Origin: Treponema sp.
GTDB taxonomy: Bacteria > Spirochaetota > Spirochaetia > Treponematales > Breznakiellaceae
Reading direction: 5' to 3'
NCBI GenBank assembly: GCA_009777735.1
Contig: WRLF01000014.1
Location: 1-64,000, forward strand
DNA length: 64,000 nt
This document shows positions 6,605-38,638 of the stretch, piece by piece (position 1 is the stretch's first letter; each line of letters starts with the position of its first letter). The position numbers were made by a program, and so were the translations under genes. The notes under the pieces were generated by a model. It saw nothing but the letters and a program-made list of their open reading frames with translations. It had not been told where the DNA came from and ran no database searches.

Positions 6605-6639
6605 CTTTTACCTTTTACTTCTTACCTTATACCTTATTA
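6605..6639. repeat. Period-7 array abutting a stop codon
   Basis: Five heptads on the plus strand: CTTTTAC, CTTTTAC, TTCTTAC, CTTATAC, CTTATTA. The array ends exactly at the stop codon (6637-6639) of the leftward acyl-CoA ligase, so on that gene's strand it is a purine-rich array following the gene. Confidence 0.75.
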
Positions 6640-8340
6640 CCCCTCGTTTCTAATCTGCACTCTGCGAATCTTGCCGGAAATGGTTTTGGGAAGCTCGGTG
6701 ACAAATTCTACAATGCGGGGGTATTTGTACGGGGCGGTGGTTTGCTTGACGTGGTTTTGGAGTTCAAGCTTGAGTTCGTCGGAAGGAGTATAACCTTTGG
6801 CAAGCACCACTGTTGCTTTTACGACTGCACCCCGGTCGGGATCGGGAACGCCGGTTATTGCACATTCCAGGACGGCCGGATGTTCCAGAAGGGCGCTTTC
6901 AACTTCAAATGGGCCTATCCGGTAGCCGGAACTTTTTATAACATCATCGTAACGGCCGACAAACCAGAAATAACCGTCTTCATCTTTCCATGCAACATCA
7001 CCGGTATAATAAATATCATTGTTCCATACACTGTTCGTTAAGGCTTCGTCGCGGTAATAGCCGCCAAACATGCCCCAGGGCTTGCCTGGCAAGCCAGGCT
7101 TGCACTTGCCGGTACGGACAACGATTTGCCCTTCCTCACCCATGTTGCATGAGGAGCCGTCTTCACGGAGTATATCAATGTCATACCCCGGCGCGGGCTT
7201 TCCCATTGAGCCCGGTTTCGGAGTCAGCCAGGGCCATGTGCAGAGGGTGACGGTTAGTTCTGTTTGACCGTAACATTCCCGCAGCTTGATTCCCGTGCCG
7301 GCAAGAAACTGCTCGTAAATTTCCGGATTTAAGGGTTCACCGGCAACAACAGCGTGTTTTAGAGCAGAAAAATCGTATGCGGCCAGATCCTCTTTTATAA
7401 AAAAACGGTAAATTGTCGGTGGGGCGCAGAAGCTGGTAAGACGGTATTTGCCGAATAATTCCAGCATGACTGAAGGCACAAAGCGGTCGTAGTCATAAAT
7501 AAATATCCCTGCCCCGCATAGCCACTGCCCATAGAGGCAGCCCCAGGCGGATTTAGCCCAGCCGGTATCGGCAACAGTATAATGCAGGCCATCCGGCACG
7601 ACCTGGTGCCAGTACTTTGCCGTAACAATATGTCCCAGGGGGTAGACATAGTTATGGCGGACCATCTTGGGCATGCCGGTTGTGCCGGATGTAAAATACA
7701 GCAGCATAATATCGTCGTTTGTGTTTTTCTGTACCGGCCGTTTGAATTCTTTCGAAGCGTTTTCCATGAGAAGACTGAAATCGGCCCAGTTATTGTCTCC
7801 GCCGGGGGAGAAATCTTTTGGGTTGTGAACCGAACGGACAAAAGCCTTGTACCGCAGATCGGCTGCTCCGCCCTTTTTTTTCACTTCATCAATCCGGTTA
7901 ATAACATCCGGATCATCGACACAGATAATGGCGGCAATGTCTGCGGCTGCACAGCGGTACTCAATATCCTTAACGGTTAACAAGTGTGTAGCGGGAATTG
8001 TTATTGCACCAAGCTTGTGCAGCGCAAGAATGATGGGCCAGTATTCCCAGCGGCGCTTAAGTATCAGCATCACCGGATCGCCTTTTCCAATTCCGGCATC
8101 GGTAAGCACATTGGCCGCCTGGTCAGAAAGGGTTTTCATTTGAGCAAAAGTAAATGCCGCTTCGGCGCCGTTTTCATCACACCACACGAGCGCCCGTTTG
8201 CTGCCTTGTTCTTCGGCAAGAGCGTCAACCACATCATAAGCAAAGTTGAAATTATCCGGGGTGTTAATCGTAAAATTCGCGGAAAAATCCTCGTATGAGT
8301 CAAATTCTGTTTTTGGTAAATATGTGTCAAGAAGTTTCAT
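6637..8340 (-). CDS. AMP-forming acyl-CoA ligase (medium-chain/acetyl type)
   Basis: 567 residues of the adenylate-forming superfamily. Visible motifs are the phosphate loop YFTSGTTGMPK, the GYGQTE-like ECYGQTE, the A8 hinge region TGDVAWKDEDGY...GRYDDVIKSSGYRIGP, and the catalytic lysine in TISGKIRR near the C-terminus. The enzyme would activate a carboxylic acid to acyl-AMP and then acyl-CoA; the acid is not known. It is last in the leftward operon aroDE-rpiA-regulator-ligase, 23 bases after an XRE/cupin regulator gene. A paralogous ligase lies at 26379, also behind an XRE/cupin gene. Confidence 0.88.
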   Translation of the reverse strand: MKLLDTYLPKTEFDSYEDFSANFTINTPDNFNFAYDVVDALAEEQGSKRALVWCDENGAEAAFTFAQMKTLSDQAANVLTDAGIGKGDPVMLILKRRWEYWPIILALHKLGAITIPATHLLTVKDIEYRCAAADIAAIICVDDPDVINRIDEVKKKGGAADLRYKAFVRSVHNPKDFSPGGDNNWADFSLLMENASKEFKRPVQKNTNDDIMLLYFTSGTTGMPKMVRHNYVYPLGHIVTAKYWHQVVPDGLHYTVADTGWAKSAWGCLYGQWLCGAGIFIYDYDRFVPSVMLELFGKYRLTSFCAPPTIYRFFIKEDLAAYDFSALKHAVVAGEPLNPEIYEQFLAGTGIKLRECYGQTELTVTLCTWPWLTPKPGSMGKPAPGYDIDILREDGSSCNMGEEGQIVVRTGKCKPGLPGKPWGMFGGYYRDEALTNSVWNNDIYYTGDVAWKDEDGYFWFVGRYDDVIKSSGYRIGPFEVESALLEHPAVLECAITGVPDPDRGAVVKATVVLAKGYTPSDELKLELQNHVKQTTAPYKYPRIVEFVTELPKTISGKIRRVQIRNEG

Positions 8341-25015: not shown

Positions 25016-25807
25016 ATGAGTTACTTGTACGAAACCCACCTGCATACCAGCTTCTCAAGTGCGTGCGGAAATACAAAAGGATCACGGTATGTCCGGCTTT
25101 ATCAGGATATGGGGTATTCCGGTATAATAGTTACCGATCATTTTTTCAGGGGAAACACAGCCGTTTCCCGCAGTCTTCCCTGGACGGAATGGGTAAAACA
25201 ATTCTGCCGGGGATATGAAGAGGCCCTGAACGAAGGAATAAAGCGGGGCTTTGACGTGTTTTTCGGCTGGGAAGAAACATTTGACAGTTGTGATGATTAT
25301 CTGGTATACGGGCTTGATAAAGAATGGCTGCTGGAACACCCCGAAGCAAAAAAATGGACCAGGGGCGAGCAATACCAAGCAGTAAAGGCTGCGGGCGGCT
25401 GTGTCGTACAGGCACATCCGTTCAGGCAGCACAGCTATATCAGGAAAGTTATCCTTTCGTCCGGTTGTGTTGACGCGGTGGAAGCGGCCAACGCGACAAA
25501 TTACGAACAGTCCTATGACGCGCTGGCAATGCGTTATGCGCTAAAACTGGGGCTTCCGGTTACTGCCGGATCAGACATGCATGATGAACGGTATTTTTGG
25601 AGTGAAGGGGTTTTCGGCATTTATACCGGGAAAAAATTTCATTCCATAGTTGATTATGTTAACGCCGTTTGCAATAATCATATCAACGGTATTAAAATCA
25701 ACAAAGGCCGCTGTGATTATTACGGCGATGAAAAAGTGATTCTTCCGGTTGAAGTCCGGGATGCCAATGACAAGAGTACCGATATACACTGGCATGATAT
25801 TATTTAA
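25016..25807 (+). CDS. PHP-domain phosphoesterase-like protein
   Basis: 263 residues. Metal-binding motifs of the PHP superfamily are present in order: THLHTSFSSACG, VTDHF, the Glu in GWEETFD, QAHPFR and GSDMHDE. This points to a trinuclear-metal hydrolase, usually a phosphoesterase; the substrate is unknown. The SD is poor. It is the first gene of a three-gene operon with an XRE/cupin regulator (10 bases on) and an acyl-CoA ligase. The protein at 30010 has the same superfamily motifs. Confidence 0.82.
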   Translation: MSYLYETHLHTSFSSACGNTKGSRYVRLYQDMGYSGIIVTDHFFRGNTAVSRSLPWTEWVKQFCRGYEEALNEGIKRGFDVFFGWEETFDSCDDYLVYGLDKEWLLEHPEAKKWTRGEQYQAVKAAGGCVVQAHPFRQHSYIRKVILSSGCVDAVEAANATNYEQSYDALAMRYALKLGLPVTAGSDMHDERYFWSEGVFGIYTGKKFHSIVDYVNAVCNNHINGIKINKGRCDYYGDEKVILPVEVRDANDKSTDIHWHDII

Positions 25808-26378: not shown

Positions 26379-28115
26379 ATGAACGATATTATTTCACGCT
26401 ATTGCCCCCGCATGGAATTTGACAGTTACGAAGATTTTTATGCAAACTACCGCTGCAATGTACCGGATAATTTTAACTTTGCCCGTGATGTGGTTGACGA
26501 ATGGGCGCGGATTTGGCCGGAAAAACAGGCCCTCCTGTGGACCGATGATTCGGGGATAGTAAAATCCTTCACATTTGCCGGCATGAAACACCTGTCCGAC
26601 AAAGCGGCAAATGCCCTGCTTGAGCTGGGTATACACAAAGGCGATGTGGTAATGCTGATACTCAAGCAGCGGCCCGAAGTATGGGTGATGATGTGTGCGC
26701 TGGAAAAAATCGGCGCAATCTGCATACCCGGCACATATCAGTTAACGGCAAAGGACCTTGAATACCGCTGTAATATTGCCGATGTCAAGCTGCTTGTTAC
26801 CGTTGATGATCCTGCATTGCTGCCGGAAATTGCCTCGGCACGGCCACACTGCGAAAAACTGGAACACATTGCCGTCATTGGCTCAGCCAATGCACAGGCA
26901 GCTGCTTCCGGTTACATAGACTTGCCGGCAGAAATCGAAAAGGCAAGTGATAAATTTCAATATGCGGAAACAAAAACCGAAGAGCCCATGCTTATCTATT
27001 TCTCCTCCGGCACAACCGGCATGCCCAAAATGGTATTGCACAACCACAGTCTGCCGCTCGGGCATATTGTCACCGCCAGGTACTGGCAATGCGTTGAAGA
27101 CAATGCCGTACACCTGACCCAGACCGATTCCGGGTGGGCAAAATTTGCCTGGGGCAAAATTTACGGTCAGTGGATATGCGGTGCTGCAGTCGGTGTATAC
27201 GACACGGAAAAATTTGTCCCCGGAGGAATGTTAGACGCAATACAGCGGCTGCGTCCGGCAACATTATGCGTCCCTGCAACGATATTCCGTTACCTCATCA
27301 AGGAAGACCTTTCCGGTTATGACTTCGGTTTTATCCGCCGAGTATCGGTAGCGGGCGAGCCTCTAAGCCCCGAAGTGTATAACCGGTTTAAGGCATTAAC
27401 AGGTCTGGAGATTCATGAAGGTTTTGGCCAGTCGGAAACTTCGGTAATGGCGGCAGTGTTCAAATGGCTGCCGGTAAAGCCCGGTTCCATGGGCAAACCC
27501 GCGCCGTTATTTAACCTGCGTCTTCTTGATGAAAACGGTGATGTGTGTGATGACGGCCTGGTCGGCAACATGAGCATTACTGCGGCAGGAAAAAATATGT
27601 ACGACCTGACCACTCCCGCCTGGCTGCTCGGGAGTGGTCAGGTCGGGCTGTCTGACTCACCCGGGTTGTTCCGGGGGTACTGGAAAGACAAGGACGTTAC
27701 CGCATCAGCGTGGAGCGGCGGCACGTACCGGACGGGCGACATGGCCTGGCGGGATGGTGATGGCTATCTGTGGTTTGTCGGCAGAAACGATGATGTGATC
27801 AAATGCTCAGGCTACCGCATCGGTCCTTTTGAAGTTGAAAGTGCCCTCATGGAGCATCCTTCGGTTCTGGAGTGCGCCGTCACTGCAGCCCCCGACCCCA
27901 TGCGCGGCCAGGTGGTCAAGGCAAGTATTGTACTGGCTAAAGGTTTTTCCCCTTCGGATGAACTAACCCGCGAATTGCAAAATCACGTCAAGCGGGTAAC
28001 CGCCCCGTACAAATACCCCCGCATCGTGGAGTTTGTTCCGGAATTGCCTAAAACAATCAGTGGTAAAATACGGCGAGTGGAGATTAGGGCAATGAACAAT
28101 GAACAGGAAAAATAA
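26379..28115 (+). CDS. AMP-forming acyl-CoA ligase (second copy)
   Basis: 578 residues, paralogous throughout to the enzyme at 6637-8340. Motifs are YFSSGTTGMPK, GFGQSE, RTGDMAWRDGDGY, GRNDDVIKCSGYRIGP and catalytic Lys in TISGKIRR. It would form an acyl-CoA from a carboxylate via acyl-AMP. It is longer than its paralogue mainly at a segment around residues 405-425, where the DNA holds a perfect 17-bp inverted repeat (27602-27645). Differences in the substrate region (CVPATIFRYLIKED against CAPPTIYRFFIKED) may change the acid used. Confidence 0.88.
   Translation: MNDIISRYCPRMEFDSYEDFYANYRCNVPDNFNFARDVVDEWARIWPEKQALLWTDDSGIVKSFTFAGMKHLSDKAANALLELGIHKGDVVMLILKQRPEVWVMMCALEKIGAICIPGTYQLTAKDLEYRCNIADVKLLVTVDDPALLPEIASARPHCEKLEHIAVIGSANAQAAASGYIDLPAEIEKASDKFQYAETKTEEPMLIYFSSGTTGMPKMVLHNHSLPLGHIVTARYWQCVEDNAVHLTQTDSGWAKFAWGKIYGQWICGAAVGVYDTEKFVPGGMLDAIQRLRPATLCVPATIFRYLIKEDLSGYDFGFIRRVSVAGEPLSPEVYNRFKALTGLEIHEGFGQSETSVMAAVFKWLPVKPGSMGKPAPLFNLRLLDENGDVCDDGLVGNMSITAAGKNMYDLTTPAWLLGSGQVGLSDSPGLFRGYWKDKDVTASAWSGGTYRTGDMAWRDGDGYLWFVGRNDDVIKCSGYRIGPFEVESALMEHPSVLECAVTAAPDPMRGQVVKASIVLAKGFSPSDELTRELQNHVKRVTAPYKYPRIVEFVPELPKTISGKIRRVEIRAMNNEQEK
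27602..27645. repeat. Perfect 17-bp inverted repeat inside the ligase gene
   Basis: CGACCTGACCACTCCCG (27602-27618) pairs with its exact reverse complement (27629-27645) over a 10-base loop. It is read in frame as part of the ligase, in a segment longer than in the paralogue at 6637. Confidence 0.85.
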
Positions 28116-28122
28116 GAAAAAC

Positions 28123-28151
28123 TTGAAAATATAAAACATGTGCGGTATATT
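28123..28151 (+). promoter_or_regulatory. Promoter of the lipoprotein/radical SAM pair
   Basis: -35 TTGAAA (28123-28128), a 17-base spacer and -10 TATATT (28146-28151), about 30 bases before the lipoprotein start. Confidence 0.7.
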
Positions 28152-28181
28152 ATTTAGTAAGGCTCTCATGCGGAGGTTGCA

Positions 28182-28367
28182 ATGAAGAAATTGTCTGAAA
28201 AAGGCAGAAAACTGCTCAGAAATGTTCTCTTGACTTTGGGCGCGGGTGCGGTATCTCTCATATTTGCGGCATGTTACGGAATGCCTGTGGATTGGGAGGA
28301 AGATCCCTATCAAGATGACATATCAACAGAAATTATAGAGGAAGATTCTTCGCTTTCTGATGATTAA
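28182..28367 (+). CDS. Small lipoprotein, likely partner of the radical SAM enzyme
   Basis: 61 residues. A basic N-terminus and hydrophobic stretch lead to IFAAC (Cys31). The mature peptide is only 31 residues, begins CYGMPVDW and is very acidic (12 Asp/Glu). GGAGG precedes the ATG. Its last eight bases overlap the radical SAM gene, so the two are translationally coupled. From memory, a genome-mining class called rSAM/lipoprotein systems (TIGR04134 lipoprotein with TIGR04133 enzyme) has the same layout and a C-YG-P start; I could not check this. The lipoprotein is probably the modification substrate, with Tyr, Trp, Met and acidic residues as possible targets. Confidence 0.8.
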   Translation: MKKLSEKGRKLLRNVLLTLGAGAVSLIFAACYGMPVDWEEDPYQDDISTEIIEEDSSLSDD

Positions 28368-29421
28368 TACATCTCAGTTTCTTTTCAATATATTTAAAAA
28401 AAACGAAACGGCGCTCCATGAATTAACGTACCTCTTTTGGGAATGTACCCTGCGCTGTAATTTGAACTGCCTGCACTGCGGAAGCGATTGCACCGCAAAT
28501 GCAATGATTCCCGATCTTCCCTTTGATGATTTTCTCAAGGCCATACTGCCTCTCAAAAAAAAGTATAAACCTGATACCATAACCGTGGCCATTACCGGAG
28601 GCGAGCCGGTATTACGTAAGGATTTACCGGATTGCGGCAGAACCCTGCGCCGTCATGGGTTTCGCTGGGGGATTGTTACCAATGGATACGATTATACTTC
28701 GAAAATACACGGTATGCTGCTGGATGCGGGTATGGGGTCCCTCACCCTGAGTCTTGACGGGCTCGAAGCCAGCCACAACTGGCTGCGGGCCAATGACAGG
28801 AGTTTTAGCCGGGCAGTTAATGCATTGGCATTAATCACCGCTTCCCAACGGTTGATTTATGATGTTGTTACCTGCGTGAATCAAAGAAATATCAATGAAT
28901 TGAATCAACTTAAAGAATTCTTGATCGATCGGAACGTCAAGGCATGGCGCCTGTTTACCATTTCACCGATTGGAAGAGCAACTGAAAACAATGAACTCTT
29001 TCTTAATCCGAATCAGCTTAAACAACTCATGGAATTTATCGTTGAGGCCCGTGCCGAAAAACGGATGCGGGTAACATTTAGTTGTGAAGCCTGGCTTGGT
29101 GAATACGAAAGAAAAGTCCGTGACGCTTGCTTTTTTTGCCGCGCCGGTATTCAAATAGCCTCAGTCCTGGTTGACGGTTCCATATCGGCGTGCCCGAATA
29201 TCAACCGGAGCTTTATTCAGGGTAATATTTACCGGGATGATTTCCTGGATGTCTGGGAAAACCGCTTTCGTATTATGCGTGACCGCCGCTGGACAAAAAC
29301 AGGAATATGTCAGGATTGCAGGGAATACAAACATTGCCAGGGCGGCGCCATGCATCTGTGGGATGAAAAAAAAGATGGTGTTTTAACCTGTATTTATAGG
29401 CAATTATCAATTAACAAGTAA
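28360..29421 (+). CDS. Radical SAM/SPASM maturase-type enzyme
   Basis: 353 residues. The SAM/[4Fe-4S] motif CNLNCLHC (Cys33, Cys37, Cys40) follows an extra Cys29. The TGGEP motif lies near residue 80, and SLDG follows. The C-terminal part carries SPASM-type cysteines: CFFC, then ACPNINR, then CQDCREYKHC and a last Cys in LTCIY, enough for auxiliary FeS clusters. The GNI..DDFLDVW segment is typical of SPASM proteins. It probably makes a radical modification on the peptide encoded just upstream (8-base overlap). The overall pattern strongly resembles peptide-modifying SPASM enzymes; the reaction is unknown. Confidence 0.88.
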   Translation: MINTSQFLFNIFKKNETALHELTYLFWECTLRCNLNCLHCGSDCTANAMIPDLPFDDFLKAILPLKKKYKPDTITVAITGGEPVLRKDLPDCGRTLRRHGFRWGIVTNGYDYTSKIHGMLLDAGMGSLTLSLDGLEASHNWLRANDRSFSRAVNALALITASQRLIYDVVTCVNQRNINELNQLKEFLIDRNVKAWRLFTISPIGRATENNELFLNPNQLKQLMEFIVEARAEKRMRVTFSCEAWLGEYERKVRDACFFCRAGIQIASVLVDGSISACPNINRSFIQGNIYRDDFLDVWENRFRIMRDRRWTKTGICQDCREYKHCQGGAMHLWDEKKDGVLTCIYRQLSINK

Positions 29422-29446
29422 CAGATACCTGTTACTTGTTAATTTT
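29411..29446. terminator. Bidirectional terminator between convergent genes
   Basis: TTAACAAGTAACAG (29411-29424) pairs perfectly with CTGTTACTTGTTAA (29429-29442) over four bases. T-rich sequence follows on the plus strand. It overlaps the ends of both the radical SAM gene and the leftward lipoprotein gene, serving both. Confidence 0.8.
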
Positions 29447-30009: not shown

Positions 30010-30780
30010 GTGCCGTTACTGACCGATTTACATAACCATTCCTGCCTTTCTCCCTGTGGCTCACTGGAATTGTCACCCCGCCGTATATTGGAAATTGCCG
30101 CCGCGAAAAACCTGCAGGTCATGGCATTAACCGATCATAATTCAAGCCTAAACTGCCCGGCATTCGCCAAACTCTGCCCCGAATTCGGCATTGTCCCCAT
30201 TTTTGGCATGGAAGCGTCCACAAACGAGGAAATTCATGTATTGTGTCTTTTTACCGATTTGGAAGCAAGCCTTGCCTTCAGCGAATTCACCTATTCTATT
30301 TTAACCCCGTTTCTCAATAATCCCGATAAAACCGGCGATCAGGTTTATGTTGATGAAAATGACAGCATTGAAGGTGAAGTAGAATACTACCTTGTAAACC
30401 CGCTCGATATTTCCATTGAGGATATAGGAGCAAAAACGGCAGAGTACGGCGGCATAGTCATTCCCGCACATGTTGATCGCCCTGCTTTTTCCATGACAAG
30501 CCAGTTAGGTACAGTAACCCCCGGCCCCTGGGCTGCTATAGAGTGCGTCCGTATTCCGCCATCCCTTGGCGGCTCGCCACCCGGAGGTGGCAGGCCTCTG
30601 GATACCCTGGGTTTCCCCCTTATTACATCATCCGATGCCCATGTTCCGGAGCATATTGCCCGCCGCCCTTTTCACCTGGCCATTACACTTGAAGAACTCC
30701 GGCCCGGCGGACCCGGCACCGAAGCTGACATGGAAGCATTCAGGCAGGCGCTGAAAATGTCTGCGGCGAAAATAAAATAA
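30010..30780 (+). CDS. PHP-domain phosphoesterase-like protein (second)
   Basis: 256 residues from GTG with ACGGAG upstream. PHP metal motifs are DLHNHSCLSPCGS, LTDHNS, GMEAST, IPAHVDR and SSDAHVPE. A PHP hydrolase such as a 3',5'-nucleoside bisphosphate phosphatase or a related phosphoesterase is possible; the substrate is unknown. Two short inverted repeats (around 30558-30595) sit in the coding sequence where it reads IPPSLGGSPPGGG. It stands alone between leftward genes. Confidence 0.82.
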   Translation: MPLLTDLHNHSCLSPCGSLELSPRRILEIAAAKNLQVMALTDHNSSLNCPAFAKLCPEFGIVPIFGMEASTNEEIHVLCLFTDLEASLAFSEFTYSILTPFLNNPDKTGDQVYVDENDSIEGEVEYYLVNPLDISIEDIGAKTAEYGGIVIPAHVDRPAFSMTSQLGTVTPGPWAAIECVRIPPSLGGSPPGGGRPLDTLGFPLITSSDAHVPEHIARRPFHLAITLEELRPGGPGTEADMEAFRQALKMSAAKIK

Positions 30781-32700: not shown

Positions 32701-34491
32701 TCAAGTAGCCAAAGGGATTCTAATCTTGAAAATTGAGCCTTCGCCGAAATGGCTTTCTACTTCGGCTGTTCCCCGGTGCAGCAAGGAAATGTGGCGGACG
32801 ATGGAAAGGCCAAGGCCGGTTCCGCCGGCCTTTCGGCTTCTCGAACGGTCAACACGGTAAAATCGTTCGAATATCCGTTCCTGATGCTCTGCGGAAATCC
32901 CAATTCCTTTATCACGTACTTCAAAGATCAATTCTCTTTCATCGGCAGATGTATCTATGTATGCGTTTATCCATACCTTTGATTTGGGCGGTGAATATTT
33001 GATGCCATTATCAATCAAATTAATCAATGCCTGTATTATTAATGAACCATATAAAACCGCTTTCAAATCGTGCGGACAGTCTACCTTGATCTCAATTTGA
33101 TTATTTTTTACCTGCATCCCTGCCGAAGAAACCGCTTCGTCAATAATTGACGCAATATATAGTTCTTCCTTGCTGTGCCCGTTGCTGGAATTGTTTTCCA
33201 AATCAGCGAGTATCAAAAGATCATTCGTAAGGTTTTCCATGATACCGGCGTTTTTTTGGATTATATCCGTAAAATGGATTATTTGTTTAATATCATCGTT
33301 TTTCTGTTCTGAAACAGTGTCCAGCAGCGTTTCGGCAAATCCTTTGATAAGCTGAATGGGTGTACGAAGTTCATGTGATACATTGGCGACAAAATCTTTG
33401 CGTATTCTTTCCAGTTTTACCAGCCGGGTGATATCCTGTAAAACAATAACAAGACCGCTTTTTTTTCCGGAAAGGGGAGACAGATACACCTGAAAAGTTT
33501 TTTCAGCGCCTATATGAAATGTAAGGTCCATTTCTGTAGGCACATCAGAAACAAGCGCTTTTTTGGCAGCTTCCGTCAATTCAGCTGAACGTGTCGCTTC
33601 CAGCAGGGACAAACCGCTGACATTCCCGTTTCCCAGATTGAATAATTCCCTTGCACGGGGGTTTACCAGATGCAATATAAGATCGCTGTCCATTGCAAAC
33701 AGCGCCTCGGACATTCCATTAAGTATCGCTTCAAGACGGCTGCCTTCTTCTCTGGCCTGTTCCAGTTTGCAATTAAGTTCATGGACAAAAGCTTTTATGG
33801 TTTTTTCCAGACTTCTGAATTCAGGGGCTATCTTTTCTTCCGATTCGGGGCCGGAAAGCAGCGGGGTGCCTGCCTGTGCAATTGTTACCAGCTTGCCAAG
33901 CGATGTTGATAAAGAACGGTAGAATGTAACAATGACCCACATTACAGCAAAAACTACAAGCAGCGTAAAAATTATAAATGGATACAATACAGAAGAAATT
34001 CGCGTTCCAAACCTCGGTATTGATAATGAAAGCCGAAATACGCCAATGACGGCATTATCCCTGCCAAAAACAGGCATCGCATAATAAAGCAAATTCATTC
34101 CGGTGCTTATGGAATTTCTGCGTGTGCTTGATTCCCTGCCTTCAAGAGCGGCTATTATTTCATCACGGTCAATGTGGTTTACCAGCCTGTTTGTTATATG
34201 CGAATCCCACAGTACATAACCGGAAGGGGCAATAAGGGTAAGGCGGTATGCGCTTGCGGCATTAACCGGAATATCAATCTCTCTAAGATGTTCATTTTCA
34301 TCGGAAATAAATATTTCTGTTATACGATCATCCCCGATTGCAGCCAGCAGGGTAAGCGCGGTATTTTTCAATCCTGTAGTATTTACTTCGTAATATAGTG
34401 AATTCATAAATACCAGTATGGTAACTGCCAGTACCGTGATAAAACCAAGAGCCGAAAGCCCCAGGATAAGCAATGTTTTTTTTAGTGTCAT
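32701..34491 (-). CDS. phoR: Phosphate-type sensor histidine kinase
   Basis: 596 residues. The order is a membrane segment (about 8-30), an extracytoplasmic sensing domain of about 150 residues, a second membrane segment (about 183-205), a linker, a PAS domain (about 245-345), HisKA with phospho-acceptor His in VSHELRTP, and HATPase with NLIDNGIKYS, DKGIGI and GTGLGLSIV. It would phosphorylate PhoB when phosphate is low and dephosphorylate it when Pst/PhoU signals sufficiency. The ATG overlaps the phoB stop (ATGA). It is the last gene of the seven-gene phosphate operon. Confidence 0.92.
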   Translation of the reverse strand: MTLKKTLLILGLSALGFITVLAVTILVFMNSLYYEVNTTGLKNTALTLLAAIGDDRITEIFISDENEHLREIDIPVNAASAYRLTLIAPSGYVLWDSHITNRLVNHIDRDEIIAALEGRESSTRRNSISTGMNLLYYAMPVFGRDNAVIGVFRLSLSIPRFGTRISSVLYPFIIFTLLVVFAVMWVIVTFYRSLSTSLGKLVTIAQAGTPLLSGPESEEKIAPEFRSLEKTIKAFVHELNCKLEQAREEGSRLEAILNGMSEALFAMDSDLILHLVNPRARELFNLGNGNVSGLSLLEATRSAELTEAAKKALVSDVPTEMDLTFHIGAEKTFQVYLSPLSGKKSGLVIVLQDITRLVKLERIRKDFVANVSHELRTPIQLIKGFAETLLDTVSEQKNDDIKQIIHFTDIIQKNAGIMENLTNDLLILADLENNSSNGHSKEELYIASIIDEAVSSAGMQVKNNQIEIKVDCPHDLKAVLYGSLIIQALINLIDNGIKYSPPKSKVWINAYIDTSADERELIFEVRDKGIGISAEHQERIFERFYRVDRSRSRKAGGTGLGLSIVRHISLLHRGTAEVESHFGEGSIFKIRIPLAT

Positions 34492-35186
34492 TCCGATACC
34501 TTGAACCGGTAACCAACGCCGCGGACAGTTTCGATCATATCTCCCGCCTTCTTGCCCAGTTTTTTCCGTAAACCAAGTATCTGAACATCTACTGAACGGT
34601 CGGTAACCGGGTAATCCGGCCCTTTTATCGCTTTGATAATCTGGCTGCGCGAAAATACTATTTCCGGATTTGATATAAAATGTTTAAGCAGCGCAAATTC
34701 GGTGGCAAAAAGGTCAAGATGCCTGCCGCCGTAATAAGCGGTATGGCGGGCGGCATCAAGTTTTAATTCTCCCTGCTGCCATGAGGTTACACTCTTGTCT
34801 TTCACGCTTTCTTCCTGCCGCCTTAAAGCCGCCCTGATTCGTGCAATCAATACTTTGGGGCTGTATGGTTTGACAACATAATCATCGGCGCCCAATTCAA
34901 GACCGGTAATGATATCCGCATCTTCACCTTTTGCCGTAGTCATTATCACCGGAATATTCCGGCATTGTTCAATATCTTTAATTTTTTTTAGAATACTAAA
35001 ACCGTCTGTTCCCGGCAGCATAATATCCAGTAATATACAGTCAGCTTTTTTGTTTTTTAAAACTTTTAACCCCTCTTCCCCGGTTGTTACCTGAAGAAGT
35101 TTCCATCCTTCCTTTGCCAATGCAAGGAACAGCAATTCCTGAATTTGGGGATCATCTTCGATAATTAAAATGACAGCTTTATTCAT
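34488..35186 (-). CDS. phoB: OmpR-family response regulator
   Basis: 232 residues. The receiver has IEDD near the N-terminus, the phospho-acceptor Asp in DCILLDIMLPG, and the conserved Thr and Lys (TTAKGED, VVKPY). The C-terminal winged helix ends with RSVDVQILGLRKKLG and TVRGVGYRF, typical of OmpR/PhoB. It overlaps phoU by eight bases and phoR by four. It presumably binds the direct repeats at 39552-39580 upstream of pstS. Confidence 0.93.
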   Translation of the reverse strand: MNKAVILIIEDDPQIQELLFLALAKEGWKLLQVTTGEEGLKVLKNKKADCILLDIMLPGTDGFSILKKIKDIEQCRNIPVIMTTAKGEDADIITGLELGADDYVVKPYSPKVLIARIRAALRRQEESVKDKSVTSWQQGELKLDAARHTAYYGGRHLDLFATEFALLKHFISNPEIVFSRSQIIKAIKGPDYPVTDRSVDVQILGLRKKLGKKAGDMIETVRGVGYRFKVSE

Positions 35187-35844
35187 TTAATTCCTCATGT
35201 TTGCCTTCAATCATATAAATGATAGCTTCACAAATATTGGTGACATGATCTCCCAGGCGTTCAAGCTGGTTTGATGTTTTTAGGATTTGAAAAGCCCCTT
35301 TTACTAAATCCGGGTACTTCTTCATTAGGTTTAACACATCTTCGGTAAGCGCCTTATGCTCTGCGTCTATTTTACTGTCCATTGCCGCGGCATCGCGCGC
35401 TGCCTGCACATCCTGCCGTAAAAATGCGGATATGGCGGCGCGAAGCATTTCCCGTCCGGTTTCGGCCATCCGCTCCAGATGCTCCTGCGCCCTGAAAGGA
35501 GAATCCCCGCGTTTAGCAAGTTTTTTTGCCGCTCGTGCAAGATGCACCGCATGATCCCCAACCCTTTCTATATTACTGGTGAGCTTAAAAATTGCCACAA
35601 TTTCCCGCATGTCGCGTGCAACAGGCTGCTGGGTAGCAATTAACATAGCGGCGTCATCTTCAATATTTATCTGCAATGCGTCAATCTCTGCATCATATGC
35701 ACGGACTTCATCCGCCAGACCTGTATTGTTTGTTTTTAGGGCAGTAAGCGCCTTGCCAAGGTTTTCTTCCGCCCTTGTTGACATTGCCAGAATATCGTGC
35801 CGCAGACGTTTTAATTCTTCGGAAAAGAACAATCGTGTATTCAT
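35179..35844 (-). CDS. phoU: Phosphate signalling protein PhoU
   Basis: 221 residues, two three-helix repeats with the PhoU signatures of the type TSNIERVGDHAVHLA and TSNQLERLGDHVTNICE. PhoU links the Pst transporter with PhoR and limits phosphate uptake and Pho activation. It is 12 bases after pstB and overlaps phoB. Confidence 0.95.
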   Translation of the reverse strand: MNTRLFFSEELKRLRHDILAMSTRAEENLGKALTALKTNNTGLADEVRAYDAEIDALQINIEDDAAMLIATQQPVARDMREIVAIFKLTSNIERVGDHAVHLARAAKKLAKRGDSPFRAQEHLERMAETGREMLRAAISAFLRQDVQAARDAAAMDSKIDAEHKALTEDVLNLMKKYPDLVKGAFQILKTSNQLERLGDHVTNICEAIIYMIEGKHEELNE

Positions 35845-35856
35845 TTTTTTCTACTC

Positions 35857-36612
35857 TCAACCAAATCTTCCGGAAATGTAATCTTCTGTCCGTTTGTCCT
35901 TTGGATTGGTAAAGACCTCCCTTGTATTGTTATATTCAATTAAATCACCCAGCAGAAAAAAACCTGTCATATTGCTGACCCTTGAAGCCTGATGCATCGC
36001 ATGGGTAACAATAACAATAGTATATTCTTTTTTTAAATTTCCAATCAACTCTTCAATCCGGCCTGTAGCAATGGGATCAAGGGCGCTGGTCGGTTCGTCC
36101 ATCAAAATAACCTCCGGCTCCATCGCGATGCTTCGCGCGATGCAAAGGCGCTGCTGCTGTCCTCCGGAAAGTGCCTGCGCCGGTTTTTTCAATCTGTCCC
36201 TGACTTCGTTCCACAGAGCGGCTTTAATAAGGGAATTTTCTACAATGTCCGCTAGCTTTCCTTTATCTTTTACTCCCTGCATCCGTTTTCCGTAAGCGAC
36301 ATTGTCAAAAACGGTCATGTTAAACGGGTTTGGTTTTTGAAACACCATTCCCACACGGCTGCGAAGTTCGGTAACATCCATTGCCCCGTAAATGTCCTGT
36401 CCGTCAAGCAAAACATCGCCGGTTATGCGGCATGACGGTATCAGGTCGTTCATGCGGTTAAGTATGCGGATAAACGTAGACTTACCGCAGCCGGAAGGCC
36501 CGATGAGAGCAGTCACATCATGCTGTGCGATTGACATATTGATGTTTTTTAACGCCTGAAAATCCCCGTAAAAAAGATCCAGACCTGTTACTTCTATTTT
36601 GCTGCCGATCAT
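35857..36612 (-). CDS. pstB: Phosphate ABC transporter ATPase
   Basis: 251 residues. Walker A is GPSGCGKST, the signature is ALSGGQQQR, Walker B is [12 protein letters not shown], and the switch His is in VTHAMHQA. The FQKPNPF motif after the Q-loop is typical of PstB. The ATG overlaps the pstA stop (ATGA). It powers phosphate import through PstCA. Confidence 0.97.
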
Positions 36613-37451
36613 GTTGTCTCTCCGATTTTTTTTCTGAAATTGGCGGCGATTAACTTGGCCGAAGTGTTTATCACCATAACGAGTATCACCAGCACCGATG
36701 CAGTGGCAAAAGCAATGCCAAAATCTTCGGGACGCACCGCTTCGTTCGTCAGATAATACAGGTGAATCGTAAGCGTTCGCCCGGATTCAAAAATGGTACG
36801 CGGCAAATTCTTTGAAATGCCGACTGTCAGCAATACCGGCGCTGATTCTCCCACAACACGGCCTATCGCAAGAATCACCGAAGTCAGTATTCCCGGCAGG
36901 GCTGACGGTAAAACCACATGAACAATGGTTTGAAACTTCGTTGCGCCCAATGCCAGGGATCCTTCACGAAAAGTGTCGGGGATGGATTTAAGGGATTCTT
37001 CGGTGGTGCGGATAATAACGGGCAGTACCATAATGCTTAAAGTGAACGCACCGGCAATTATTGACTGGCCAAAACCCAAAAGGCGGCAGAACATCAAAAG
37101 GCCAAAAAGCCCGTAGATAATAGACGGAATCCCTGCGAGGGTTTCGATTGCAAGGCGTAATATCCGTATGAGCTTTGAATTACCGGAGTATTCATTTAAA
37201 AAAATCGCGCTGGCTATTCCGACCGGCAGTGCAACGGCGATTGATACAAGTACCACATACATGGTGGTTACAATCATGGGAAGAATACCGGCTTCTGCGC
37301 TGGTAAGAAACGAAACATTAAGAAAACCGGCCTGCGATCTGAATATATACAGTATGACAAATAACAGGGCGATAATAACGCCCCCCATTGCCGCCGCCAT
37401 GACACCGTACATTATTCTGTCAATTATTTTTTGTTTCTTGATTTTTTTCAT
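36609..37451 (-). CDS. pstA: Phosphate ABC transporter permease PstA
   Basis: 280 residues from ATG 37451, which overlaps the pstC stop (ATGA); a longer frame to 37481 is inside pstC. About six membrane segments and the EAA-type loop ([20 protein letters not shown]) identify an ABC permease. It forms the phosphate channel with PstC. Confidence 0.95.
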
Positions 37452-38638
37452 AACTCTACTTCCATGCGGCGGCGGTACCATAAAATCAAATTGTTAAGAA
37501 TCAGAATAATCGAAAACAGGGCAACGCCGATGGAAAACAACATCTCGCTGTGCCTGCCTGATGCGTACCCCATTTCCATGGCGATTGTGGCCGTAAGCGT
37601 TCTGACACTTTCCAGGGGGTTAAATGTCAAGTGGGGCGAATTTCCCGCAACCAGAATAACCGCCATGGTTTCGCCCACTGCACGGGAAATCCCCAGGATA
37701 ATTCCGGCAATCACCCCCGAATTGGCATGGGGCAGTACAACATTCCACGCGGTCTGCATTCTGCTGGCACCAAGCGAAAGGCTTGCTTCCCGTACCGACA
37801 GCGGAACTGCACGCAGGGATGTTTCCGCGATGGTAATCACCGTAGGCAGTATCATCAGCGCCAGCACAATGATTGCCGAAAGCAGTGTATTGCCGGACGG
37901 TATGTTAAATGTATTTCGAACAAACGGTACTATTACCATAAGGCCGAAAAACCCGTACACCACCGAAGGGATTCCTGCCAGTAGCTCTACGCCCGCCCGT
38001 ACAACGGCAGCATGTTTTGATTTAAGAAATTCCGCCATAAAAAGAGCGCATAACAAGGCAATGGGAACCCCAAGCACAATCGCACCAAAACTTGCCATTA
38101 AAGTCCCTGCAATCATCGGCAGAATGCCGTACACTTTGTCCTTGTTCGGACGCCATGTTAGTCCGGCAAGAAACCCGCCAATGCTGTAGGGCGGTTCCGG
38201 CAAGATAATGTATATTCTTTTTTCAAGCGCGGCAATGGCTGCCGGCCAGCTTACCGTATGTACATAACTTTCCGGGTAGGTTGCCGTTACTTCGCTGCTT
38301 GCTGAAAATCCGAGTTTTTTCTGCGGGTCTTTTTCATTGTCGTAAACGGTTATTACAAGTGATTCTTCACCGTCTGTTACCGGAAATTTTATTGCAATAA
38401 TTTCTGTGTTTTTTGGAATGGTAATGAAAGAAGAATGATTAAGATATAATTCTCCGTTTACGGTAAGCTCGTCAATGCGCTGTGGTACAAGACGGATGCC
38501 CGCAGCTGTGGGAGTAAAAAAAGGTACTGTTCCCTGAATAAAAACAAACAGTAAAATAGCTCCCAATGCCAATACGGAAAAGAGGGCTACAATGCTGAAC
38601 AGATGTTTAAAAAAAACATCGGTGAATTTTCGATTCAC
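37448..38638 (-). CDS. pstC: Phosphate ABC transporter permease PstC
   Basis: 396 residues, longer than the usual ~300. The N-terminal membrane segment is followed by an extracytoplasmic insert of about 130 residues before the permease core, which has the EAA-type loop SLSLGASRMQTAWNVVLPHA. Larger periplasmic loops occur in some PstC proteins. It starts two bases after the pstS stop. Confidence 0.95.
   Translation of the reverse strand: MNRKFTDVFFKHLFSIVALFSVLALGAILLFVFIQGTVPFFTPTAAGIRLVPQRIDELTVNGELYLNHSSFITIPKNTEIIAIKFPVTDGEESLVITVYDNEKDPQKKLGFSASSEVTATYPESYVHTVSWPAAIAALEKRIYIILPEPPYSIGGFLAGLTWRPNKDKVYGILPMIAGTLMASFGAIVLGVPIALLCALFMAEFLKSKHAAVVRAGVELLAGIPSVVYGFFGLMVIVPFVRNTFNIPSGNTLLSAIIVLALMILPTVITIAETSLRAVPLSVREASLSLGASRMQTAWNVVLPHANSGVIAGIILGISRAVGETMAVILVAGNSPHLTFNPLESVRTLTATIAMEMGYASGRHSEMLFSIGVALFSIILILNNLILWYRRRMEVEL

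What the first reader, a model, noticed from the sequence alone, without database searches (positions are those of the whole stretch)
28123..29446. Coupled small lipoprotein and radical SAM/SPASM enzyme
A 61-residue lipoprotein with a 31-residue acidic mature part (C-YG-P start) overlaps by eight bases a SPASM enzyme with a full CxxxCxxC and six or more extra Cys. It has its own promoter and a perfect terminator, so it is a self-contained unit. The layout matches what I recall as rSAM/lipoprotein systems, whose chemistry and purpose are, to my knowledge, not described. A radical modification of a surface lipopeptide would be unusual.
Basis: partly seen in the sequence, partly recalled or inferred. 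Interest (0 to 1): 0.78.

Follow-up and report, generated by a model that had tools for sequence, protein, structure and literature searches.

The report
Radical SAM enzyme paired with lipoprotein
A spirochaete carries a two-gene unit in which a radical enzyme, related to enzymes that cut a tyrosine out of a protein chain and reseal it, sits next to a tiny membrane-anchored protein with the matching tyrosine-glycine tag, which suggests a testable job for an enzyme family of unknown function.

Summary
The pair is real. The 353-aa enzyme passes TIGR04133 (468 bits, cut-off 425): an rSAM/lipoprotein system. The 61-aa lipoprotein matches no family and is not TIGR04134. By hand tally, 105 of 112 related loci have a secreted or lipo-protein with Tyr-Gly beside or near the gene; 3 have Tyr without Tyr-Gly, 2 are cut by a contig end, 2 have none. 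Chosen blind to the motif, 78 of 82 adjacent lipobox ORFs carry Tyr-Gly, against 12 of 94 elsewhere. The passenger part switches long/short at least 16 times on a quick tree while Tyr-Gly stays. XYG is the published site of PlpXY 'spliceases'. TIGR04133 forms a clade with PlpX-type and GDL enzymes (98/93), shares six residues with them, and five of those six enzymes lie beside YG peptides. Best explanation: a stand-alone splicease that removes tyramine from Cys-Tyr-Gly of the pro-lipoprotein, leaving a ketoamide at the lipid-bearing Cys. The chemistry is inferred; the enzyme lacks one SPASM Cys, and no PlpY was seen. A key 2022 survey was not held.

The parts
28182..28367 (+). 61-aa pro-lipoprotein, proposed substrate (signal peptide, lipobox FAAC, CYGMP, acidic tail)
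   Evidence: the leader profile finds it at E 3.2e-22 in the own genome (it is a row of that profile)
28182..28271 (+). signal peptide with a conserved n-region (EKxRKxLR), proposed recognition leader
   Evidence: alignment A5 of 12 spirochaete-type partners: R9 and R13 invariant
28272..28286 (+). Cys31-Tyr32-Gly33-Met34-Pro35: lipobox Cys plus the XYGxP motif, proposed splice site
   Evidence: Y32 and G33 invariant in A5; motif counts; XYG site of PlpXY in PMC10533398 (passages)
28287..28364 (+). short acidic tail, in place of the CarboxypepD_reg-like domain of many relatives
   Evidence: 12 D/E in the mature part; long forms; 14 of 78 blind-chosen YG partners are 80 aa or less
28360..29421 (+). 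TIGR04133 radical SAM/SPASM enzyme, 353 aa, proposed splicease
   Evidence: AlphaFold2 mean pLDDT 91.1; fold matches to SPASM peptide enzymes
28456..28479 (+). CxxxCxxC (C33, C37, C40) of the radical SAM [4Fe-4S] cluster; followed by Gly-Ser (HCGS)
29137..29391 (+). SPASM region C260 to C344, with Gly329 where PlpX/GDL-type rows have Cys
28172..28176 (+). GGAGG, likely ribosome binding site of the lipoprotein gene (by eye)
   Evidence: sequence
28123..28151 (+). promoter-like TTGAAA-17-TATATT; not above chance in this region
29409..29444 (.). perfect 16-bp palindrome, possible weak terminator between converging genes

Best explanation
The two genes form a minimal rSAM/lipoprotein system. The pro-lipoprotein is made first and, by the 8-base overlap, the enzyme is made beside it. 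In the cytosol the TIGR04133 enzyme recognises the unusual signal peptide (which doubles as a RiPP-type leader, no PlpY/PqqD-type protein being seen) and acts at Cys31-Tyr32-Gly33. [quoted passage not shown] The edited protein is then exported by Sec, lipidated on the Cys thiol by Lgt, cut by Lsp, and displayed as a roughly 30-residue acidic lipopeptide with an electrophilic ketoamide at its anchor; in relatives with EYG, MYG, LYG or KYG sites and a CarboxypepD_reg-like domain it would be a tethered ketoamide, perhaps a surface protease trap. Shown: gene pairing, motif conservation, clade with PlpX-type/GDL enzymes. Inferred: order of events, leader recognition, tyramine excision, lipidation, role.
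For: TIGR04133 over cut-off, TIGR04103 next best. Hand tally of 112 loci: 105 with a YG protein (99 same strand within about 150 bases or overlapping, 4 divergent at 31-520 bases, 2 at about 0.5 and 1 kb). Blind choice: 78 of 82 adjacent lipobox ORFs have YG within 60 aa of the Cys, against 12 of 94 control ORFs. The leader profile hits 11 of 36 same-genus genomes strongly; 10 carry the enzyme over cut-off, and in the 11th (G001) the contig ends inside the lipoprotein gene. Passenger form changes at least 16 times on a quick tree. Published: PlpXY acts at XYG, natural sites MYG and LYG, tags with LYGLP and GYGVV (PMC10533398 passages; PMC11002830 passage). A Nostoc TIGR04103 member (853 bits, cut-off 725) lies beside a Nif11 precursor ending LYGLPPELF. 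Three DUF1843-associated relatives and the Agathobacter one lie beside small peptides with YG. Tree: 18 TIGR04133 + 6 PlpX/GDL-type rows are one side of a branch, 98/93 (86/90). Residues G41, S42, W196, A207, L215, E250: at least 80% in both halves, at most 19% in the 16 other rows.
Against: 114.7 bits against a TIGR04103 cut-off of 725, with NirJ2 (109.8) and TIGR03913 (109.7) close behind; 25-28% identity to four PlpX/GDL-type rows. Gly329 in place of a SPASM Cys that six of six PlpX/GDL-type rows have, and four Cys they mostly lack, so the auxiliary clusters may differ. PlpX works with PlpY; none is seen here and no PqqD match in the own, 83% complete genome. Gly is not always kept: L112 CYAPGG, L118 and L119 Y-x-G-P; only 4 of 8 DUF1843 peptides in three GDL-type loci have YG near the N-terminus, the other four have Tyr without it; no YG peptide was found at Tropicibacter. 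Two loci have no partner (L072, L082). XYG alone does not suffice for PlpXY: only two of the FtsZ-tag variants were spliced. X = Cys at a lipid anchor has no characterised precedent that I know. Pleurocapsa PlpX and NirJ2 were not in the tree, and PqqE, MftC and NirJ are long branches in it. No biochemistry.
Confidence: 0.66

Rival explanations
1. The enzyme modifies the Tyr-Gly site of the lipoprotein, but by another radical reaction (Tyr-centred crosslink, epimerisation, dehydrogenation or side-chain loss), not by tyramine excision.
For: Its Cys pattern differs from the PlpX/GDL-type rows (Gly329; C29, C44, C172, C242); three divergent loci keep Tyr but not the following Gly; enzymes of the same fold do many reactions (matches to SuiB, ChlB, anSME, PqqE).
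Against: The sister group includes a TIGR04103 enzyme with an LYGLP precursor, and five of its six members lie beside YG peptides. A crosslink from the ring to the third residue is unlikely as a general rule: that residue is Gly in 5 of 101 motifs and otherwise variable.
Confidence: 0.25
2. The lipoprotein is not a substrate: the enzyme makes or modifies something else, and the lipoprotein is a partner that anchors or senses that product.
For: The passenger domain of many partners (CarboxypepD_reg-like) could bind a ligand; some loci have two or three partners or one about 1 kb away.
Against: The passenger is replaced at least 16 times on the tree and may be just an acidic tail, while Tyr-Gly persists; 19 of 82 blind-chosen partners carry two or three motifs.
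Confidence: 0.07
3. Chance neighbourhood: a small ORF that happens to precede an rSAM gene.
For: The promoter-like site is at chance level; the ORF has no family match.
Against: 78 of 82 against 12 of 94 (Fisher p 1.6e-31; loci are not independent); RefSeq annotates such a pair in Parabacteroides distasonis and Treponema saccharophilum.
Confidence: 0.02

Closest known systems
rSAM/lipoprotein system (TIGR04133 enzyme with TIGR04134 lipoprotein)
   Same: Enzyme over the TIGR04133 cut-off; overlapping lipoprotein gene; YGxP after the lipobox
   Different: Lipoprotein is 61 aa with an acidic tail and no TIGR04134 match; of ten other partners scanned, four are over the TIGR04134 cut-off, four under it, two without match
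PlpXY-type splicease / spliceotides (TIGR04103 with Nif11-type precursors)
   Same: XYG site, common clade, shared G41, S42, W196, A207, L215, E250
   Different: No PlpY seen, a Sec/lipoprotein signal peptide instead of a Nif11 leader, altered SPASM Cys set, product expected to stay on the envelope
GDL-motif rSAM systems (TIGR03913 with DUF1843 peptides)
   Same: Same clade; 4 of 8 peptides in three loci carry YG near the N-terminus
   Different: Enzymes with a C-terminal extension (474-518 aa), peptides without signal sequence (by eye), Gly after Tyr not constant
Mycofactocin MftC and PQQ PqqE
   Different: Outside the clade, on long branches; HCGS not present (alignment)

Membership tests
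TIGR04133 rSAM_w_lipo | score over the curated cut-off of 425 bits | tested here: met
   468.1 bits, E 1.5e-140
TIGR04133 rSAM_w_lipo | lipoprotein gene adjacent | tested here: met
   28182-28367 overlaps the enzyme gene by 8 bases
TIGR04134 lipo_with_rSAM | match to the TIGR04134 model (cut-off 39.8 bits) | tested here: not met
   no match in the own genome at E<=10, none in the scan of the protein at E<=1
TIGR04134 lipo_with_rSAM | lipobox Cys with YGxP close behind (my description from the partners seen, not the model's text) | tested here: met
   FAAC-YGMP
PlpX-type splicease (TIGR04103) | score over the TIGR04103 cut-off of 725 bits | tested here: not met
   114.7 bits
PlpX-type splicease (TIGR04103) | common clade with TIGR04103/TIGR03913 apart from MftC, NirJ, TIGR04053, AhbD, PqqE | tested here: met
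   24 of 40 rows one side of a branch, 98/93; NirJ2 and Pleurocapsa PlpX not included
PlpX-type splicease (TIGR04103) | XYG in the adjacent substrate | tested here: met
   Cys31-Tyr32-Gly33
PlpX-type splicease (TIGR04103) | RRE partner PlpY | tested here: inconclusive
   no convincing small same-strand gene at the locus; PF05402 has no match in the 83% complete own genome at E<=1, but PlpY is a truncated RRE that this model may miss
PlpX-type splicease (TIGR04103) | complete SPASM Cys set | tested here: not met
   Gly329; six of six PlpX/GDL-type rows have Cys there, none of 18 TIGR04133 rows
PlpX-type splicease (TIGR04103) | tyramine excision with ketoamide product | not testable with these tools
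   needs mass spectrometry
Radical SAM/SPASM proteins (PF04055, PF13186) | both Pfam domains over gathering scores, CxxxCxxC | tested here: met
   50.0 bits (29.5) and 35.0 bits (21.5); C33/C37/C40

The most novel reading that the evidence does not exclude
Probability: 0.5. Interest if true: 0.86.

Novelty: new variant of a known kind. Interest (0 to 1): 0.72.

Why it matters
TIGR04133 is still filed as a hypothetical equivalog ('rSAM_w_lipo'), although places encoding it turn up in many Bacteroidota, Spirochaetota and Fibrobacterota. A specific reaction, site and mass change would turn that open question into one co-expression experiment. If true, bacteria write reactive ketoamides into exported, membrane-anchored proteins and not only into peptides; that would matter for protease control at the cell surface, for lipoprotein sorting, and as a two-gene route to site-specific labelling (ketoamide ligation is already used with PlpXY, PMC10533398). 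The window's 61-aa lipoprotein is among the shortest partners seen here (14 of 78 are 80 aa or less).

Tried and rejected
Reading the lipoprotein as TIGR04134: rejected. Reading the unit as having a proven promoter and terminator: not supported. A test of YG excess over composition was dropped, because the set had been picked for YG; the blind choice replaces it. A first automatic tally (92 of 112 with a partner) was set aside, because it let in spurious ORFs and missed partners without a lipobox; the hand tally replaces it. Two further hits of an ACYGxxP-coding pattern in the own genome (as many as the reversed control pattern gives) do not lie in frame in a lipoprotein ORF. A NirJ2 search of 59 genomes gave no sequence.

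Literature: TIGR04133/TIGR04134/rSAM-lipoprotein phrases gave 0 papers. 'radical SAM-associated' or 'putative lipoprotein' or 'TIGR04133 family' gave 858, 10 listed, none of the 10 with the first or third term. TIGR04103/TIGR03913/IPR026482/GDL motif gave 2: one passage of PMC11002830 was seen, the other only in the listing. Splicease/spliceotide searches showed 20 of 850, 23 of 27, 25 of 203 and 10 of 561 papers; among those shown none holds both splicease or spliceotide and lipoprotein, where both were searched. Two papers on Bacteroidales RiPPs and graspetides were seen in passages only and do not mention this system there. Passages only were seen of PMC10533398, PMC11002830, PMC10373908, PMC10885120, PMC11117315, PMC8868522 and PMC9415263. 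Scott et al. [quoted passage not shown] That IPR026482 (named for PlpX in PMC11002830) equals TIGR04103 is recalled, as is the name CteB for 5wgg/5why.

Near-duplicate pairs by tree or partner sequence: L027/L033, L031/L035, L036/L038, L088/L093, L111/L122. The control ORFs are mechanical. For one search, short/long labels were given by hand and 10 of 113 rows were left uncounted; 16 is a parsimony count on a quick tree. In one search L019 gave no match and was left out; L132 and L135 were dropped as long rows and 4 of the 6 fetched AhbD loci added.

Full report
OBSERVATION. The window encodes, on the + strand, a 61-aa lipoprotein (28182-28367) and a 353-aa radical SAM/SPASM protein (28360-29421) whose genes overlap by eight bases. 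The mature lipoprotein is CYGMPVDWEEDPYQDDISTEIIEEDSSLSDD: 31 residues, 12 acidic, none basic. The enzyme has CxxxCxxC at 33/37/40 and 15 Cys in all, and both Pfam domains are over their cut-offs. The promoter-like site is at chance level (4 found, mean 3.1 in shuffles) and follows a same-strand acyl-CoA synthetase gene with 7 bases between; the perfect 16-bp palindrome has only four G-C pairs and a poor T tract. So the pair is real; its transcriptional independence is not shown.

HOST. G239, placed in the same order as the window's genome, encodes the same enzyme and lipoprotein as the plasmid of Treponema saccharophilum (L111 and L122), so the host is most likely a spirochaete of that order.

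IDENTITY. The enzyme matches NCBIfam TIGR04133 (rSAM_w_lipo) at 468 bits, above the cut-off of 425; the next families are TIGR04103 (nif11-class maturase 3, 114.7), NirJ2 (109.8) and TIGR03913 (GDL, 109.7). The lipoprotein matches no TIGR04134. Of ten other partners scanned, four are over the TIGR04134 cut-off of 39.8 bits (L050, L068, L092, L122), four under it (L021, L024, L040, L041) and two have no match (L032, L077); eight of the ten match a CarboxypepD_reg model at E<1, only L021 over Pfam's cut-off. The window partner is a short form with an acidic tail where that domain would be; 14 of 78 blind-chosen YG partners are 80 aa or less.

RELATIVES. In 59 genomes of relatives, 12 pass the TIGR04133 cut-off; in an even draw of 296 genomes of the phylum, 11 do. 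Of the 36 genomes of the window's genus (own one included), 11 do: a patchy trait, though many of these genomes are incomplete. A genome-contig scan returned the best 80 of 558 confirmed places, mostly Bacteroidota, also Spirochaetota, Fibrobacterota and a few others by title. Reading 112 loci by hand: 99 have a same-strand secreted or lipo-protein with Tyr-Gly within about 150 bases, up- or downstream; 4 have it divergent, 31-520 bases away (L057, L061, L076, L081); 2 at about 0.5 and 1 kb (L090, L080); 3 have a partner with Tyr but no Tyr-Gly motif (L112, L118, L119); 2 are cut by the contig end (L046, L073); 2 have none (L072, L082). In L086 the start of the partner, and so its signal peptide, is not seen.

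IS IT MORE THAN CHANCE. I chose, without looking at the motif, the nearest ORF with a strict lipobox ending within 300 bases upstream: 82 of 112 loci have one, and 78 of the 82 carry YG within 60 aa of the Cys; of 94 mechanical lipobox ORFs away from the enzyme in the same loci and the window, 12 do (Fisher p 1.6e-31, loci not independent). The four misses are L112, L118, L119 and L097, the last by a misplaced Cys (it has MYGC). In the 101 motifs so found, X is Cys 50 times, Glu 16, Met 13; Pro stands second after YG in 72. A profile of the leader region finds a strong match in 11 genomes of the genus; 10 carry the enzyme over cut-off, and in the eleventh (G001) the contig ends inside the lipoprotein gene, so no orphan lipoprotein of this type was seen; the weak match in G017 (E 0.006) is another ORF. 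G013 has the enzyme with a YG partner that this profile misses (L001).

WHAT IS CONSERVED. In twelve spirochaete-type partners only M1, R9, R13, Y32 and G33 are invariant, with L12, G20, A30 and C31 nearly so (L006 has Ala in place of Cys). Other groups have other leaders, so the leader is a group feature and Tyr-Gly the common one. Long and short passengers alternate: at least 16 changes on a quick tree of 113 enzymes, 10 rows uncounted, and the window (short) is next to L005 (long, enzyme 77% identical). Fibrobacter partners carry several YG motifs in low-complexity sequence (L077, L090). This points to Tyr-Gly, with the leader, as what the enzyme sees. By eye some partners have a plain signal peptide without Cys (L006, L021, L022, L069, L094), so lipidation is usual, not essential.

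THE MECHANISM LEAD. Passages of PMC10533398 state that PlpXY converts XYG by excising a tyramine equivalent (C8H9NO) and fusing the tyrosine carbonyl to the preceding residue, that the natural sites are MYG and LYG, and list tags with LYGLP and GYGVV; they also say that only two FtsZ variants were spliced, so XYG alone is not enough. A passage of PMC11002830 places PlpX in IPR026482. I found a TIGR04103 enzyme on a Nostoc plasmid (853 bits, cut-off 725) beside a Nif11 precursor ending IALYGLPPELF. A TIGR03913 enzyme of Azospirillum lipoferum (763 bits, cut-off 592), one annotated as such in Azospirillum B510, and a relative in Aureibacter (535 bits, under the cut-off) lie beside eight DUF1843 peptides; four have YG near the N-terminus (MLYGGA, KPYGVA, RPYGPA, QPYGAG), four have Tyr without it (MYMAT twice, LYAAG, MYAAS). 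The Agathobacter enzyme follows an unannotated 68-codon ORF ending VMYGTGVRM; none was found at Tropicibacter. In a tree of 40 enzymes the 18 TIGR04133 and these 6 stand on one side of a branch (98/93), against four AhbD, two TIGR04053, one each of NirJ, MftC, PqqE and a Paenibacillus rSAM, and six unnamed ones; PqqE, MftC and NirJ are long branches. Without AhbD and with two more long rows it was 86/90. Six residues reach 80% in both halves and at most 19% outside: G41, S42, W196, A207, L215, E250.

CONCLUSION. That the enzyme acts on the Tyr-Gly site of the lipoprotein: about 0.9. That the reaction is tyramine excision: about 0.66. In the window X is the lipobox Cys, so the product would be a lipopeptide whose anchor residue carries the ketoamide. 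Role: in EYG/MYG/LYG/KYG partners a surface protease trap is plausible (a passage of PMC11117315 calls spliceotide products protease inhibitors); for CYG partners, with nothing N-terminal of the lipidated residue, a role in anchoring or sorting is as likely. Both roles are inference. Novelty is limited by the named family and by a 2022 survey that I could not read.

Noticed in passing
window 6637-8340 (-) and 26379-28115 (+): Two similar acyl-CoA synthetase-like genes with closely matching starts (by eye); the second, matching AMP-binding families, lies directly upstream of the lipoprotein.
   Followed up: no
window 25016-25807 (+) and 30010-30780 (+): Two PHP-domain-like proteins on either side of the unit; PF02811 is over cut-off in the second only.
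   Followed up: no
   Followed up: partly
L115: Three tandem short lipoproteins with YG before one divergent enzyme.
   Followed up: no
L077, L083, L085, L090, L097 (Fibrobacter): Partners with YG motifs in low-complexity, sometimes Ser-rich sequence; seven YG in L077.
   Followed up: partly
L069 4036-4953 (+): A 305-aa Fibrobacter partner with three YG, without a lipobox and with what looks like a C-terminal sorting tail (by eye).
   Followed up: no
L124, L125, L134: DUF1843 peptides beside GDL-type rSAM genes; 4 of 8 have YG near the N-terminus, so some may be splicease substrates too.
   Followed up: partly
L127 1243-1449 (+): Unannotated 68-codon ORF ending VMYGTGVRM just upstream of a splicease-like enzyme on an Agathobacter plasmid.
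   Followed up: no
L049, L056, L007, L060, L096, L103, L114: Tandem partners of different length or different X residue before one enzyme.
   Followed up: no
window 32701-37481 (-): A phosphate-regulon-like run (sensor kinase, response regulator, PhoU-, PstB-, PstA-like), judged by eye from the ORF list.
   Followed up: no
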